Origin: an uncultured cyanobacterium
Lineage (GTDB): Bacteria; Cyanobacteriota; Cyanobacteriia; Cyanobacteriales; Microcystaceae
Direction: 5' to 3'
DNA length: 50,249 bases
NCBI GenBank assembly: GCA_903887375.1
Contig: CAISPN010000018.1
Coordinates: 1 to 50,249, forward strand
Shown: one piece after another, positions 18,136 to 27,313 of the stretch
How positions within the stretch are numbered: the stretch's first letter is position 1
How the letters are laid out: each line of letters begins with the position of its first letter
Program-made: the position numbers and the translations under genes
The notes under the pieces: generated by a model
Told to the model about the DNA's origin: nothing
Database searches by the model: none
The model's input: the letters and a program-made list of their open reading frames with translations, nothing else

Positions 18136-19566
18136 ATGACTCAACTCAATTTAAAGCAGGGTTTGTTTAACCGCTATAGCAGCGATACGGTCACAAACAT
18201 CAATAGCGCAACTAATCAAGATGTGACGGCTATATACAATAGCGCTACTATAGTCACCGGTATTGGCAGTGACCAAATTGTTGGGGTTGCTAATTTACTA
18301 GATAGTCTCGTTTCTGCAACTACAACTACGACAACCACCACTAGTTCTTGTGGTGGTTCCTATTCCTGTGGATCCTATGATACTGACTTTTCAGCAACTG
18401 GGGTCTGGAACAATGGTGGCTCGATAACTTTCGGTTCTGGTGTTGACCTGCTCAGTGGAACTGCCAATGTGACTGTTACCGGTGCTAACAAGTATGAGGT
18501 TGATTCTATTGGTTTTGACAATTATGGTTGCTATGCCTCTGTAGTTTTTGGCGATGGCAACGACCAGGTAATTGGCAATTCTAATATCACTGTCAATGTT
18601 GATACTACAGCCAATCTTCTCTCTACAGGTATTGAAAACTACAGAGGGACAATCAAAACTGGAGGTGGTACTGATTCAATTACTGGCAATTCAGTAGTTA
18701 CCCTAAGCACTACCAACGTGCCCAATGTATTCGCTGTCGGTATTGATAACCACTATGGCGACATCACTATGGGTGGTTGTAGTGGTGATGATCAAATAAT
18801 AGGCACTGCTACTATTAGTACGTCTGGCGGTGGGATTATTCCCGATGCTGTTGTTGCTTCACCTGCGACTACTACGGCTTCCCCCAGTTGCACTACAACG
18901 ACAACAACTACTACATCTGGTTGTGGTGGTGGTTCTTATACTCCTCCTTTGAATGCTTCTGTTGATACTATAGGTCTTGAGAACTATTCTGGTACTATCA
19001 CCTTGGGAAATGGTAACGATACTCTCTCTGGCATAGCCACTATTAATGGCGGTGCCAATGGAGCAGTTGGTATTTACAATACCGGTTCAATTTCCCTAGG
19101 CAATGGTACTGATACAGTCTCTGGTATTGCTAGTGTCACAGGTGGAACCTATGCCTTGGGTCTATACAACAGTGGCACCATAGCTTTTGGTACTGGAGCT
19201 GATACTTTAATCGCCCGGGCCTCGATTACCGGTTTGGCTCCGCAAGCTGTCACTATTGATGGTCGTGGTACAATTACCATGAGTGGTACAAAGAACTACT
19301 TTAGTGGTTTTGGTAACCAAACAGTGCTTGCCGGTTCTACCAACAACTATTCCTATTGTGGTGGCTATAGCCAAAATACGACAACCAATCAAAATACAAT
19401 CGATTTAAGTTTTGTTACTCAAGCTAGCATGGGTATCACCTTGGGTAGCTACAACACCAACACAGTTGCCTTTAACTATGCTGGTGCTACTATGAAGACC
19501 TCTGGTTTTAACAACTTTATCTTTGCTGATGGTACTTATACTTATTCTCAGCTAAAATCCCACTAA
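18136..19566 (+). CDS. RTX-like beta-roll repeat protein, probably secreted or surface
   Basis: The 476-residue protein is built from eight to nine degenerate units with the core pattern GI-N-x-G-x-I-x-x-G-x-G-x-D-x-(I/L)-x-G-x-A. Clear examples are ITLGNGNDTLSGIATI, ISLGNGTDTVSGIASV and IAFGTGADTLIARASI. The GxGxD element recalls calcium-binding RTX nonapeptides and related parallel beta-roll repeats. Two low-complexity inserts stand out, each a run of threonines followed by a Cys/Gly/Ser cluster (near residues 62-78 and 252-270). There is no N-terminal signal peptide, as expected if a type I system recognises the C-terminus, but none is in the window. No enzymatic domain is visible. The function may be adhesive or S-layer-like. 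A strong terminator follows. Confidence 0.6.
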   Translation: MTQLNLKQGLFNRYSSDTVTNINSATNQDVTAIYNSATIVTGIGSDQIVGVANLLDSLVSATTTTTTTTSSCGGSYSCGSYDTDFSATGVWNNGGSITFGSGVDLLSGTANVTVTGANKYEVDSIGFDNYGCYASVVFGDGNDQVIGNSNITVNVDTTANLLSTGIENYRGTIKTGGGTDSITGNSVVTLSTTNVPNVFAVGIDNHYGDITMGGCSGDDQIIGTATISTSGGGIIPDAVVASPATTTASPSCTTTTTTTTSGCGGGSYTPPLNASVDTIGLENYSGTITLGNGNDTLSGIATINGGANGAVGIYNTGSISLGNGTDTVSGIASVTGGTYALGLYNSGTIAFGTGADTLIARASITGLAPQAVTIDGRGTITMSGTKNYFSGFGNQTVLAGSTNNYSYCGGYSQNTTTNQNTIDLSFVTQASMGITLGSYNTNTVAFNYAGATMKTSGFNNFIFADGTYTYSQLKSH

Positions 19567-19647: not shown

Positions 19648-19740
19648 TTATTTGGCTCTGCTTAAAAAAATAGCAGCCAAGATAATTAATCCCAATAAGC
19701 AGAGGGGAACAGCTAAACTAGCTGCATCATATTTAGTCAT
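19648..19740 (-). CDS. Putative 30-aa single-helix membrane peptide
   Basis: The minus strand encodes MTKYDAASLAVPLCLLGL followed by a strongly hydrophobic run and a short basic end (SRAK). It looks like the tiny one-helix subunits of photosynthetic complexes, but does not match PetN, PetG, PetL, PsbT, PsbM or PsaM as I know them. Its ATG abuts the ATG of the divergent plus-strand fusion gene, so any ribosome-binding site would sit inside that gene's first codons; only a weak GAG is seen. The 3' end is followed by the bidirectional terminator, which supports transcription on this strand. Moderate doubt remains because such a short frame can occur by chance. Confidence 0.4.
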   Translation of the reverse strand: MTKYDAASLAVPLCLLGLIILAAIFLSRAK

Positions 19741-22197
19741 ATGCTCATTCAAGAAATAGCCATTTGGTTAAAAGAACGTAGTGCTCTTAATATCTTAGAT
19801 CAGGCAACTCTTCTAGAGCTAGCGCCTGAACTTGAGAGCCGTTCTTTTGCCTCTCAGCAAAATGTCGTCACAGAAGGCACATATCCCGACGGGCTCTATA
19901 TTCTAGTATCCGGGCGATTAGAAGATCAAAAAGCAAATGTTAGTCTTCTTAGCGGTGCGGTGATCAATCTCCAAGAGCTACTTTTAGATCAAGCAATAAG
20001 CTCAAATATATTAACTCTTAATGAAGCAGAGCTCTGGTACATAGATAGGGAAAAATTTGTAGCCTTTGCCGATACACATCCTGAACTTGGTTTGAAGTTT
20101 ACTCAAAAACTTGCCAATGATCTCGAAGAGTTAGCTTCTCAACTATCTTTTGAACAAGAAAGGCAAACTATTTTAAGGCCTTATCTGGTCAATAGGGCAA
20201 AGCGCGGTATTGTCGGCAAAAGTAGCTATGCAACTAGATTGCGCTCACAAATTCAAGCATCTTCCCACAATAGAGAGCCAGTTTTGATATTTGGTGAGCC
20301 CGGCTTAGAGAAAGATAACATGGCAGCTTTGATTCATTTTGGTTCTGATGATCGCCATGAGCCAATCGTCAAGGTTGACTGTGCTAGTTTACAATCTAAT
20401 GGCTTTGAGCTCCTAGGTAAATTTGGCGCAAAGATGGGCTTATTAGAAGCCCTCAAAAAAGGGACATTGATTCTCAATAATATCCAAGAGCTTCCTCGTG
20501 AGTTGATTCCGGTAATCATTGAGCTATTACAAAAAGGCAGCTATTGCCCTATAGGTGGACAGAAAAAGCAATCCCAAGCTCGCATTATCATGATTTCAGA
20601 AAATGCCATTCCCAATGTAGATAGGATAGTCAAAAATATTATCAAGGTACCTCCTCTGCGAGTAAGAAAGGCAGATATTAATTACCAGGTTGATTACTAT
20701 CTCAATATCATCTGCTCACGTAAAGGTATTAACAAGATCGAAGTGTCTCCTGAGGCTTTACGCCGTTTGCAAGCCTATGATTTTCCCAATAATTTAAGAG
20801 AGCTAGAAAATTTAGTAGAAAGGGCTGTTACGCAGCTTTCGGGCGGCAATGTGATCACCGAGGAAATCATCTGGCCCTCACAGGGCAAAAAGAAACAATT
20901 GCGTTTTAACCTTCTCAACGCTTATCCAGCCTTGCGCAGTTTTCTTCATAGTTCTTGGTATCCCGAAAGAATCAACTATGGCTTTACAACAGTAGCTTTT
21001 GCTTTAATTGTTGCCATTTTATTCTTAGGTCCTCAAAATAGAGCTGAAAATTTTGCCCTCAATCTCTTTTGGGCTTGGTGGTGGCCATTGTCACTGCTAG
21101 CTTTTCCCTTTCTAGGTAGGATTTGGTGTGCCTTTTGTCCCTTTATGATCTATGGGGAGATTGTTCAAAAACTTTCGCTATATTTTTTTCCTAGAGAGCT
21201 GAAAAAATGGCCCAGAGTAACTGCAGAAAAATGGGGAGGCTGGTTTATCTTTGCTCTATTTGCTCTGATTTTGCTATGGGAAGAACTCTGGGATCTGCCT
21301 AATACTGCTTATCTTTCAGCTTGTTTGTTACTGTTAATTACTGCAGGAGCGATCATTTTTTCGGTGATCTTTGAACGTAGGCTTTGGTGCCGTTATCTCT
21401 GTCCTATTGGTGGAATGAACGGAATGTTCGCCAAACTCTCTATGACTGAATTGCGAGCGCAGCAGGGAACTTGTTCGGCCGAATGTACTACATATCAGTG
21501 CTACAAGGGTGGGCCAGCCAAAGGTGAAGGTTTAGCTACTGATGGTTGTCCACTCTATTCTCATCCTGCTCAGTTGAATGACAACAGAGATTGTGTATTG
21601 TGTATGACCTGTTTAAAAGCCTGTCCACATCGCTCGGTAGAACTAAATTTGCGTCCACCTGCTATAGAACTGTGGACTTCGCATTTACCGCGCATTTATG
21701 AAGTCGCGCTTCTTTTTTTGCTTCTTGATGTTGTTTTTCTGCATCATCTGGACGATATTTTGCCTGATTGGGATTTGAGCAAATTCTCTATCCATGCAGG
21801 AATATCTATACTGATTTTGGCATTACCGGCTATTTTGCCCATTTTGGCCAGTCGATTAGCCCAAAGCGAGCAAATTTCCTGGGTTAAATTAGCTTATGGT
21901 TATCTTCCAATAGTTCTAGCTGCTAATCTTGCTCATTATCTAAACTTAGGATTATCTGAAGCAGGCAGGATAATTCCAGTAAGCTTTGCTACTTTTGGTT
22001 TATCAAAAGCAAATTTGCCTATCTTGGTAGCAGATCCTGCTGTTATTAGCTTTTTACAGGGAGTGACTTTGCTAGTAGGATTACTTTGTTCTGTTATTGT
22101 AGCTATCAATATTGCCAAAGGAGCTTGGAGAAAGCTCCTACCTCAACATTTTGCTAGCTTGCTTCTTACAGTGTCGCTTTGGCAGGTGATTGTGTAA
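19741..22197 (+). CDS. Fusion: CNB-like domain, degenerate sigma-54-type AAA+, NapH-like membrane ferredoxin
   Basis: The 818-residue protein has three parts. Residues 15-140 resemble a cyclic-nucleotide-binding fold but lack the FGE...R phosphate cassette. Residues 150-380 resemble a sigma-54 activator AAA+ domain. Walker A is altered (GEPGLEK, 185-191), Walker B reads GTLILNNI (241-248) with NN in place of DE, and the GAFTGA loop is gone. The arginine region PPLRVRKADI is kept. Residues 405-818 form a membrane part with about eight or nine helices and NapH/CcoG-type motifs WCAFCP (C463, C466), WCRYLCP (C550, C554) and a [4Fe-4S] cluster CxxCxxCxxxCP (618-629). Cyanobacteria lack sigma-54, so the AAA+ domain is probably a structural or signalling relic. 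A redox-sensing or electron-transfer role at the membrane is inferred. Confidence 0.8.
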   Translation: MLIQEIAIWLKERSALNILDQATLLELAPELESRSFASQQNVVTEGTYPDGLYILVSGRLEDQKANVSLLSGAVINLQELLLDQAISSNILTLNEAELWYIDREKFVAFADTHPELGLKFTQKLANDLEELASQLSFEQERQTILRPYLVNRAKRGIVGKSSYATRLRSQIQASSHNREPVLIFGEPGLEKDNMAALIHFGSDDRHEPIVKVDCASLQSNGFELLGKFGAKMGLLEALKKGTLILNNIQELPRELIPVIIELLQKGSYCPIGGQKKQSQARIIMISENAIPNVDRIVKNIIKVPPLRVRKADINYQVDYYLNIICSRKGINKIEVSPEALRRLQAYDFPNNLRELENLVERAVTQLSGGNVITEEIIWPSQGKKKQLRFNLLNAYPALRSFLHSSWYPERINYGFTTVAFALIVAILFLGPQNRAENFALNLFWAWWWPLSLLAFPFLGRIWCAFCPFMIYGEIVQKLSLYFFPRELKKWPRVTAEKWGGWFIFALFALILLWEELWDLPNTAYLSACLLLLITAGAIIFSVIFERRLWCRYLCPIGGMNGMFAKLSMTELRAQQGTCSAECTTYQCYKGGPAKGEGLATDGCPLYSHPAQLNDNRDCVLCMTCLKACPHRSVELNLRPPAIELWTSHLPRIYEVALLFLLLDVVFLHHLDDILPDWDLSKFSIHAGISILILALPAILPILASRLAQSEQISWVKLAYGYLPIVLAANLAHYLNLGLSEAGRIIPVSFATFGLSKANLPILVADPAVISFLQGVTLLVGLLCSVIVAINIAKGAWRKLLPQHFASLLLTVSLWQVIV

Positions 22198-26938: not shown

Positions 26939-27313
26939 ATGCTCACACCAGTTGATACGATTAAAATATTCCAAAAACAACCTGGAAATATTAAATTTCC
27001 TGCAGGCACAATTATTTTCAATGAAGGCGAGCCGGGTGATACTATGTTTGGAATTATCAGTGGTGAAGTGGAGTTTAGTCTCAACGATCAAATCATTGAA
27101 AGTCTCTATGCAGGAGATATTTTTGGCGAGGGAGCCTTGATAAATACTGAGCATAAAAGATTATCTAAAGCTGTTGCCAAAAACGATTGTGAGCTGGTTA
27201 GCCTCGATAAAGATCATTTTATCTTTGCTGTCCAAGAAACTCCTTTATTTGCCTTGGAAGTAATGCGCAGTCTTTCAGTTAGACTGCGCAACCTGAAACA
27301 GCATTTGGTTTAA
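26939..27313 (+). CDS. Stand-alone cyclic-nucleotide-binding domain protein
   Basis: The 124-residue protein is a single CNB domain without a DNA-binding domain. It has the strand pattern GTIIFNEGEPGDTMFGIISG and a phosphate-binding cassette region GDIFGEGALINTEHKRLSKA, where the FGE glutamate is kept. The arginine that contacts the nucleotide phosphate is shifted (HKRLSKAVA instead of xRxASAxA), so binding is uncertain. A helical tail (LEVMRSLSVRLRNLKQHLV) ends the protein. Single-domain proteins of this type are frequent in cyanobacteria and are presumed partners of other signalling proteins. It ends 15 bases from the convergent Gly/Met/Pro-rich gene. Confidence 0.82.
   Translation: MLTPVDTIKIFQKQPGNIKFPAGTIIFNEGEPGDTMFGIISGEVEFSLNDQIIESLYAGDIFGEGALINTEHKRLSKAVAKNDCELVSLDKDHFIFAVQETPLFALEVMRSLSVRLRNLKQHLV

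What the first reader, a model, noticed from the sequence alone, without database searches (positions are those of the whole stretch)
19741..22197. CNB-like domain + pseudo-sigma-54 AAA+ + NapH-type membrane ferredoxin in one protein
The protein fuses a regulatory front with a polyferredoxin membrane module. The AAA+ part has lost the GAFTGA loop and Walker B (NN for DE), and Walker A is altered. Cyanobacteria have no sigma-54, so the front cannot be a normal activator. A redox module that signals through a dead AAA+ and a CNB fold would be new.
Basis: partly seen in the sequence, partly recalled or inferred. Interest (0 to 1): 0.7.

Follow-up and report, generated by a model that had tools for sequence, protein, structure and literature searches.

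The report
Cyanobacterial membrane iron-sulfur protein with pseudo-AAA+ head
Many cyanobacteria carry one protein that joins a worn-down gene-regulator ATPase to an iron-sulfur membrane electron carrier, and it is often co-inherited with a tiny 30-residue membrane peptide, so it looks like an uncharacterised membrane redox machine mislabelled as a nitrogen regulator.

Summary
Window 19741-22197 (+) encodes one 818-aa protein: degenerate CNB, sigma-54-activator-type AAA+ with lid, then a NapH/NosR-like membrane module with 12 invariant cysteines. It is no artefact: the 80 named loci kept (best of 520 relatives) all hold the fusion. GAFTGA, both Walker B acids and the arginine-finger stretch are gone; Walker A is mildly altered (Lys in 107 of 107 rows). 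No complete rpoN was found in 244 genomes of the phylum; one genome has a lone sigma-54 DNA-binding domain.

Two things change the picture. A sister subfamily keeps an intact P-loop, and 7 of its 10 CNB-bearing loci have cysK directly beside it. And a 30-aa single-helix peptide is encoded head-to-head with the window gene (19648-19740, -). Its family occurs (E <= 1e-5) in 33 of 53 genomes with this subfamily and 0 of 191 without; in 9 of the 33 it is not near the fusion gene.

Best reading (0.45): a membrane iron-sulfur oxidoreductase, often with a small helical partner, whose former activator head is a nucleotide-binding or scaffolding regulator. Function is inferred. 'Signalling through a dead AAA+ and CNB' stays possible; the CNB is the least conserved part and missing in some members.

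The parts
19741..22197 (+). Fusion gene, 818 aa: CNB-like / pseudo-AAA+ with lid / membrane iron-sulfur module
   Evidence: ORF; domains; relatives
19840..20079 (+). Degenerate CNB-like domain (residues 34-113)
   Evidence: Pfam cNMP_binding 31.2 bits, cut-off 27.5; lowest mean identity
20209..20604 (+). Pseudo-AAA+ domain (residues 157-288)
   Evidence: Sigma54_activat 61.4 bits; best Foldseek rows NtrX, NtrC1, PspF
20293..20319 (+). Walker A remnant GEPGLEKDN (residues 185-193)
   Evidence: K191 and D192 in 107 of 107 subfamily-1 rows; position 190 E 94, G 9, Q 4
20410..20433 (+). Site of the deleted GAFTGA (L1) loop (residues 224-231)
   Evidence: alignments
20476..20481 (+). Walker B acids replaced by Asn-Asn (residues 246-247)
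   Evidence: NN 104, SN 2, TN 1 of 107 rows
20659..20874 (+). AAA+ lid domain (residues 307-378)
   Evidence: AAA_lid_14 50.8 bits
20956..22191 (+). Membrane iron-sulfur module, read as nine membrane helices (residues 406-817)
   Evidence: model m4d15b8243167, pTM 0.82, mean pLDDT 81; two shorter helices taken as amphipathic, my reading; 12 Cys invariant in 107 of 107 rows
21127..21141 (+). First membrane cysteine motif CX2CP (C463, C466)
   Evidence: invariant
21388..21405 (+). Second membrane cysteine motif CX3CP (C550, C554)
   Evidence: invariant
21472..21627 (+). Two putative [4Fe-4S] motifs (C578, C582, C587, C603; C618, C621, C624, C628)
   Evidence: invariant; mostly pLDDT under 50 in the model
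19648..19740 (-). Divergent small ORF, 30 aa, one predicted membrane helix; its start codon abuts that of the fusion gene
   Evidence: family; co-occurrence; codon-position pattern

Best explanation
It is a membrane-bound iron-sulfur oxidoreductase of the NapH/NosR kind that exchanges electrons between the quinone pool and a cytoplasmic partner through two [4Fe-4S] clusters on the cytoplasmic face. The former sigma-54-activator AAA+ domain has lost its transcription loop and its hydrolysis residues and serves as a nucleotide-binding or purely structural regulatory head that assembles or gates the redox module; the CNB-like domain is an optional further part. In much of subfamily 1 a 28-38 aa single-helix peptide, encoded head-to-head with it in the window, works with it as a small subunit or regulator. 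Shown: architecture, conservation, motif losses, lack of a complete rpoN in the genomes searched, co-inheritance of the peptide. Inferred: electron transfer, quinone as partner, cluster binding, nucleotide binding, physical association.
For: Conservation is highest in the Fe-S part (mean pairwise identity 0.91) and the first membrane half (0.81), against 0.62 for AAA+, 0.63 for the lid and 0.45 for CNB (83 non-redundant rows); all 12 cysteines in 107 of 107 rows. Unfused relatives of the membrane module exist (Deinococcus ficus 29%; L131, 473 aa, 27%). No DNA-binding domain in the Pfam scan. Transcription loop and hydrolysis residues lost; no complete rpoN. Small-peptide family at E <= 1e-5: 33 of 53 genomes with subfamily 1, 0 of 191 without; 36 of 55 against 0 of 43 in the closer sample at E <= 1e-4. 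In 9 of the 33 it is over 10 kb away (4) or on another contig (5), so this is not mere neighbourhood. For comparison cytochrome bd had 35 of 53 inside and 28 of 191 outside, NiFe hydrogenase 14 of 53 and 18 of 191. Sister subfamily: cysK directly next in 7 of its 10 CNB-bearing loci; two of the ten have Hdr-like genes and one of these an SQR-like gene. PMC5928378 (passages) reports that NapH membrane segments were proposed as a quinol-oxidising domain and that NosR-type proteins first named transcriptional regulators were later placed in electron transfer.
Against: No activity, redox partner or complex is shown. The second membrane half (0.62) is no better conserved than the AAA+ domain, and the AAA+ domain still has 42 of 150 columns at 95% or more, more than a passive linker needs. 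No conserved neighbour of 70 aa or more: the best other cluster is in 10 of 80 named loci, some with short flanks. Twenty of 53 subfamily-1 genomes lack the peptide at the threshold; a widened profile tried on 29 such genomes from both samples added two, so the peptide is not obligate or is missed. The first cysteine motif is CX2CP, not the CX3CP described for NapH, NosR and RdhC. One fusion-bearing genome (G199) has a sigma-54-type DNA-binding domain. No solved relative of the module was found by profile or Foldseek (decides nothing).
Confidence: 0.45

Rival explanations
1. Redox sensor: the membrane iron-sulfur module senses quinone, sulfide or oxygen state, and the pseudo-AAA+/CNB front relays it to transcription or to a partner enzyme.
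For: A regulatory-type front is kept and fairly well conserved. Activator relatives with a damaged GAFTGA occur elsewhere: PMC3162934 (passages) names VpsR, DhaR and YplP. Sister-subfamily genes lie by cysK and other genes of a sulfide type. A gene at what seems the same place in Synechocystis, slr1529, is called ntrX in print.
Against: No DNA-binding domain in the Pfam scan; CNB degenerate and missing in some members; no conserved neighbour; NtcA-type sites upstream not enriched (6 of 79 against 9.3% in shuffles); conservation is highest in the Fe-S part.
Confidence: 0.22
2. Assembly or maturation factor: like NosR or CcoG (CcoG recalled), the module delivers electrons or metal for building another membrane enzyme, and the AAA+ head acts as a scaffold.
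For: NosR is described as acting both in activation of NosZ and in electron transfer (PMC5928378, passages); an AAA+ head would suit a chaperone-like role; the gene has no conserved neighbours.
Against: Hydrolysis residues are lost in subfamily 1, which argues against active remodelling; no client gene co-localises.
Confidence: 0.2
3. Subfamily 1 is a slowly decaying former regulator of little function.
For: Patchy: 62 of 244 genomes match at E <= 1e-30, sister groups included; AAA+ motifs degraded.
Against: 56-81% identity in relatives, 12 of 12 cysteines invariant in 107 rows, uninterrupted frame, co-inherited peptide.
Confidence: 0.05

Closest known systems
NapH / NosR / RdhC membrane modules
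   Same: membrane core with two Cys-Pro motifs, followed (NapH, NosR) by two [4Fe-4S] motifs, as described in PMC5928378 (passages)
   Different: first motif is CX2CP; five further helices after the Fe-S part (my reading); fused to a CNB/AAA+ front; under the curated napH_ cut-off (43.8 against 213 bits); no FMN domain in the Pfam scan
Sigma-54 enhancer-binding proteins (NtrC, NtrX, PspF, NifA)
   Same: AAA+ fold and lid
   Different: no GAFTGA loop, no Walker B acids, shortened arginine-finger stretch, no DNA-binding domain found, no complete sigma-54 in the genomes searched
Activator relatives with a damaged GAFTGA (VpsR, DhaR, YplP; TyrR recalled)
   Same: AAA+ of the same family without an intact sigma-54-contacting loop (PMC3162934 passages)
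   Different: those are soluble DNA-binding regulators (recalled); this one is membrane-bound with an iron-sulfur module
Synechocystis slr1529 ('ntrX', nitrogen assimilation regulatory protein)
   Same: probably the same gene: genomes L118 and L119 have it beside pyrG- and leuD-like genes, and L118 also near desaturase-, pdxH-, scpA- and ffh-like genes, the order I recall for slr1529 (genes named by eye)
   Different: rests on gene order and recalled locus tags; its sequence was not compared
Small single-helix subunits of membrane redox complexes (CydX, CcoQ, PetN kind, recalled)
   Same: 28-38 aa, one helix, seen at the threshold only in genomes with the large protein
   Different: no Pfam family and no convincing NCBIfam or PDB match; association not shown

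Membership tests
Sigma-54 enhancer-binding protein | AAA+ domain of the Sigma54_activat family | tested here: met
   61.4 bits, cut-off 20.2; Foldseek
Sigma-54 enhancer-binding protein | GAFTGA loop | tested here: not met
   deleted in the window and in the 30 orthologues printed and the sister rows; the two reference activators have GSFTGA and GAYTGA
Sigma-54 enhancer-binding protein | Walker B Asp-Glu | tested here: not met
   NN 104, SN 2, TN 1 of 107
Sigma-54 enhancer-binding protein | Walker A lysine | tested here: met
   107 of 107; the glycine before it is replaced in 98 of 107
Sigma-54 enhancer-binding protein | arginine-finger segment (position recalled from PspF) | tested here: not met
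   segment shortened against the solved activators and in the alignments
Sigma-54 enhancer-binding protein | sigma-54 in the genome | tested here: not met
   own genome: no match for PF04963 or PF04552. Phylum: PF04963 over cut-off in 0 of 244 and 0 of 98; PF04552 in 2 of 244, of which G199 has the fusion and a lone 202-aa DNA-binding-domain protein. Controls positive in 4 of 14. A genome with a GAYTGA activator (G184) also showed no PF04963, so sensitivity is not perfect or that genome is odd
Sigma-54 enhancer-binding protein | C-terminal DNA-binding helix-turn-helix | tested here: not met
   none in the Pfam scan at E <= 1; the membrane module follows the lid
Cyclic-nucleotide-binding regulators | CNB fold | tested here: met
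   31.2 bits, cut-off 27.5
Cyclic-nucleotide-binding regulators | phosphate-binding cassette (GE...R; motif recalled) | tested here: not met
   absent by inspection of the rows
NapH/NosR-type membrane ferredoxin | two CX3CP motifs | tested here: not met
   second is CX3CP, first is CX2CP, both invariant
NapH/NosR-type membrane ferredoxin | two C-terminal [4Fe-4S] motifs | tested here: met
   eight Cys invariant in 107 of 107, the first motif with unusual spacing; cluster binding itself not tested
NapH | score over the curated napH_ cut-off | tested here: not met
   43.8 against 213.05 bits
NosR / RdhC | FMN-binding domain | tested here: not met
   no such family among the 12 at E <= 1
NapH/NosR-type membrane ferredoxin | quinol oxidation and electron transfer | not testable with these tools
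   needs biochemistry

The most novel reading that the evidence does not exclude
Cyanobacteria turned a sigma-54-activator ATPase into the allosteric head of a membrane iron-sulfur oxidoreductase: nucleotide state read by a catalytically dead P-loop domain gates electron flow between the quinone pool and the cytoplasm, together with a 30-residue helical subunit; a sister branch with an intact P-loop is the sulfide-adapted version.
Probability: 0.3. Interest if true: 0.78.

Novelty: new variant of a known kind. Interest (0 to 1): 0.58.

Why it matters
A conserved membrane redox protein of many cyanobacteria seems to hide behind the name 'nitrogen assimilation regulatory protein'. If the reading is right, it adds an uncharacterised component to cyanobacterial electron transport, shows a transcription ATPase recruited as the head of a redox enzyme, and gives a 30-residue partner peptide that makes the complex directly testable in laboratory strains.

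Tried and rejected
Sequencing fusion: rejected. Conserved neighbours of 70 aa or more in 80 named loci: none above 10 of 80. NtcA control upstream: 6 of 79, chance 9.3% from mononucleotide shuffles. Co-distribution with cytochrome bd or NiFe hydrogenase: enriched, but with many exceptions, and neither passes in the window's own genome. Solved relatives of the membrane module: only weak ferredoxin matches by profile, none by Foldseek or in the viral library; VIA-align gave matches up to Z 7.3, mostly over model residues 304-454, and decides nothing. The tiny peptide in Pfam, NCBIfam and PDB: no convincing match. The first alignment was wrong because minus-strand loci were not turned; redone. 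Full-length model: good N-half, poor C-half; the C-half was remodelled alone. The hit in G063:C28 is a canonical activator on a contig that looks foreign by eye and was dropped as a homologue.

Limits. Subfamily 1 in the phylum sample was told from sister groups by score, by hand (53 of the 62 matching genomes). The peptide threshold (1e-5) was set after seeing the list: at E <= 0.1, 62 of 244 genomes match, 35 with and 27 without subfamily 1; every match outside has 20.2 bits or less, against 28 or more for the best match of each of the 33 kept and 22.3 for G253. The best outside match in a short frame with the start of the helix is G157, 38-aa frame, E 0.005. The 107 rows hold repeats of the same genomes (83 at 90% identity). 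In one search one picocyanobacterial row (L158) was labelled 2a by an N-terminal length rule; the tree groups it with the other four. Subfamily 1 as one group is weakly supported (33/89); the tree holds 13 of the 20 subfamily-1 rows I named, as the rest were not in the file. The codon-position test is biased towards coding because cores were picked by an amino-acid pattern. Fisher tests treat genomes as independent; genus- and family-level tables give p 5e-6 and 5e-5. Genome lists were typed by hand.
Full report
What is there. The window lies in a 2.93-Mb genome whose relatives are cyanobacteria. ORF 19741-22197 (+) encodes 818 aa without interruption. Pfam finds a CNB-like domain, a Sigma54_activat AAA+ domain, its lid, and Fer4_5 membrane-ferredoxin matches; NCBIfam finds NapH similarity far below the curated cut-off (best 25 of 35 families shown). 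The closest solved sequences to the AAA+ part are sigma-54 activators, and Foldseek on the full-length model agrees (50 of 1711 rows seen).

It is a real, conserved fusion. In 98 relatives, 66 have a match; 55 carry the window's own subfamily at 56% identity or more (tallied). A profile of the family matched 62 of 244 genomes across the phylum at E <= 1e-30; one of these, G184, matches only by an activator domain with GAYTGA and LDE (row EBP_L168).

State of the motifs. Across 107 subfamily-1 rows, the Walker A lysine and the following Asp are invariant, the preceding position is E 94, G 9, Q 4, and Walker B is NN 104, SN 2, TN 1. The GAFTGA loop is deleted and the stretch of the arginine fingers is shortened. 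All 12 cysteines of the membrane module are invariant. The first membrane motif is CX2CP rather than CX3CP. Mean pairwise identity by part: CNB 0.45, AAA+ 0.62, lid 0.63, first membrane half 0.81, Fe-S part 0.91, second membrane half 0.62.

Sigma-54. PF04963 exceeded its cut-off in 0 of 98 relatives and 0 of 244 genomes, with 4 of 14 controls positive; one match in G056 stayed below the cut-off. PF04552 exceeded it in 2 of 244: G290, 23.1 bits against 22.8, and G199, 62.1 bits in a 202-aa ORF. G199 carries the fusion, so a lone sigma-54-type DNA-binding domain and the fusion coexist there; whether they are linked is unknown. PMC3162934 (passages) states that sigma-54 and its activators were absent from all 29 cyanobacteria then sequenced and that databases over-call activators by ignoring GAFTGA.

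Sister groups. A second subfamily is about 39-43% identical over the full length and 46-52% over the membrane module. It has GKT in 14 of 15 rows, the 15th being gapped, and Walker B DN in 11 of 15. Ten loci carry its CNB form (L122-L126, L136, L137, L164, L165 and the split L167); cysK is directly next in seven (not L126, L164, L165) and was not clustered in any of the five CNB-less loci (L127-L130, L163). On the two plasmids, L136 has annotated cysteine synthase, Q(B) protein, b6f iron-sulfur subunit, DsrE and rhodanese genes, and L137 has cysteine synthase, Q(B) protein, PetC and a pyridine nucleotide-disulfide oxidoreductase. L125 has HdrA-, HdrC-, HdrB- and SQR-III-like genes, all below curated cut-offs, and a cysK above it; L164 shares the Hdr-like set. 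A third, picocyanobacterial group of five CNB-less forms has GEPGLEKDN with varied Walker B. The tree of 35 rows supports the picocyanobacterial group (100/100) and the second subfamily (100/98); subfamily 1 is one side of a branch with weak support (33/89).

The membrane module. A model from 31 sequences has pTM 0.82 and mean pLDDT 81, the Fe-S loop being poorly modelled. With the front in the cytoplasm I read four membrane helices before and five after the Fe-S part, all cysteine motifs then lying on the cytoplasmic side. No solved relative was found.

A small partner. Head-to-head with the window gene is an ORF of 30 codons on the minus strand (19648-19740 with its stop), MTKYDAASLAVPLCLLGLIILAAIFLSRAK; the two start codons abut. 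An HMM over all small ORFs found members adjacent and divergent in 34 of 80 named loci and within 2 kb in 6 more, none in 40; three of those 40, missed through the length filter, were then seen by eye (L064, L085, L097). Two of the 80 loci have less than 330 bp upstream. At genome level, with E <= 1e-5, the family occurs in 33 of 244 genomes, all among the 53 with subfamily 1 and none among the 191 without. In the closer sample it is 36 of 55 against 0 of 43 at E <= 1e-4. In 9 of the 33 genomes it lies over 10 kb from the fusion gene on the same contig (G013, G105, G119, G199) or on another contig (G025, G053, G067, G148, G180; two of these near a contig end); such copies sit among varied genes. 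G085 has two fusion genes and two small ORFs, one beside each. A widened profile tried on 29 subfamily-1 genomes lacking it and 29 genomes without the fusion added G128 and G253 among the former; the best match among the latter was E 0.008 inside a 515-aa frame. Codon positions vary 0.27, 0.08 and 0.55, as expected of a coding sequence, with the selection bias noted under Tried and rejected.

Link to a model organism. In two genomes of one genus (L118, L119) the gene lies next to pyrG- and leuD-like genes; in L118 desaturase-, pdxH-, scpA- and ffh-like genes follow (named by eye). From memory this is the neighbourhood of Synechocystis slr1529. In print slr1529 is called ntrX or nrtX, 'nitrogen assimilation regulatory protein': ratio 0.29 after 3 uM copper in a table of repressed genes (PMC4182526, passage); negative values in an iron-deprivation table and an mRNA/antisense pair of class I (PMC3516471, passages); a deletion mutant among six with the largest metabolite changes at 72 h (PMC5318462, passage). 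No printed description of the architecture turned up in searches, which cover open-licence papers only.

How it most likely works. The best-conserved part is the Fe-S and first membrane half, relatives of which occur without the front; the front has lost residues needed to drive sigma-54 but keeps its P-loop lysine. I therefore read it as a membrane iron-sulfur oxidoreductase with a pseudo-AAA+ regulatory head and, in about six of ten subfamily-1 genomes, a small helical partner. PMC5928378 (passages) offers a precedent: NosR-type proteins were first named transcriptional regulators and later placed in electron transfer, and NapH's membrane part is proposed to oxidise quinol. Electron partners, nucleotide binding and complex formation are inference.

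Noticed in passing
window 19648-19740 (-): 30-codon ORF head-to-head with the fusion gene; a family of tiny single-helix peptides found, at the threshold used, only in genomes with subfamily 1.
   Followed up: yes
L188:3415-4023 (G199:C1): 202-aa protein with a sigma-54 DNA-binding domain (62.8 bits) and no other sigma-54 part found, in a cyanobacterium that carries the fusion.
   Followed up: partly
L125, L164: Sister-subfamily genes in clusters with Hdr-like genes; L125 also has SQR-III-like, rhodanese-like, NrdG-like, cysK and psbA genes.
   Followed up: partly
L177, L178, L182, L186: In four genomes the tiny peptide gene lies by the same two genes (named by eye LapA-like and ScpA-like), perhaps an older place.
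   Followed up: partly
L161:6675-9546, L162:6403-9298: In two picocyanobacterial genomes the CNB-less form overlaps the end of an upstream SDR-like gene (named by eye) by a few bases, suggesting translational coupling.
   Followed up: no
L132:5592-6953 (G063:C28): A canonical sigma-54 activator (GESGTGKE, GSFTGA, LFLDE) in a cyanobacterial assembly without a PF04963 match; neighbours look foreign by eye, so perhaps contamination.
   Followed up: partly
L168 (G184): An activator-type protein with GAYTGA and LDE in a genome of the phylum without a PF04963 match over the cut-off.
   Followed up: no
L167:3039-5758 (G274:C175): A sister-subfamily gene split into two frames at the AAA+ domain: a natural split or an assembly error.
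   Followed up: no
window 26939-27313 (+): A stand-alone 124-aa protein that by eye looks like a single CNB domain.
   Followed up: no
window 18136-19566 (+): Repetitive 476-aa ORF with threonine runs just upstream of the fusion gene.
   Followed up: no
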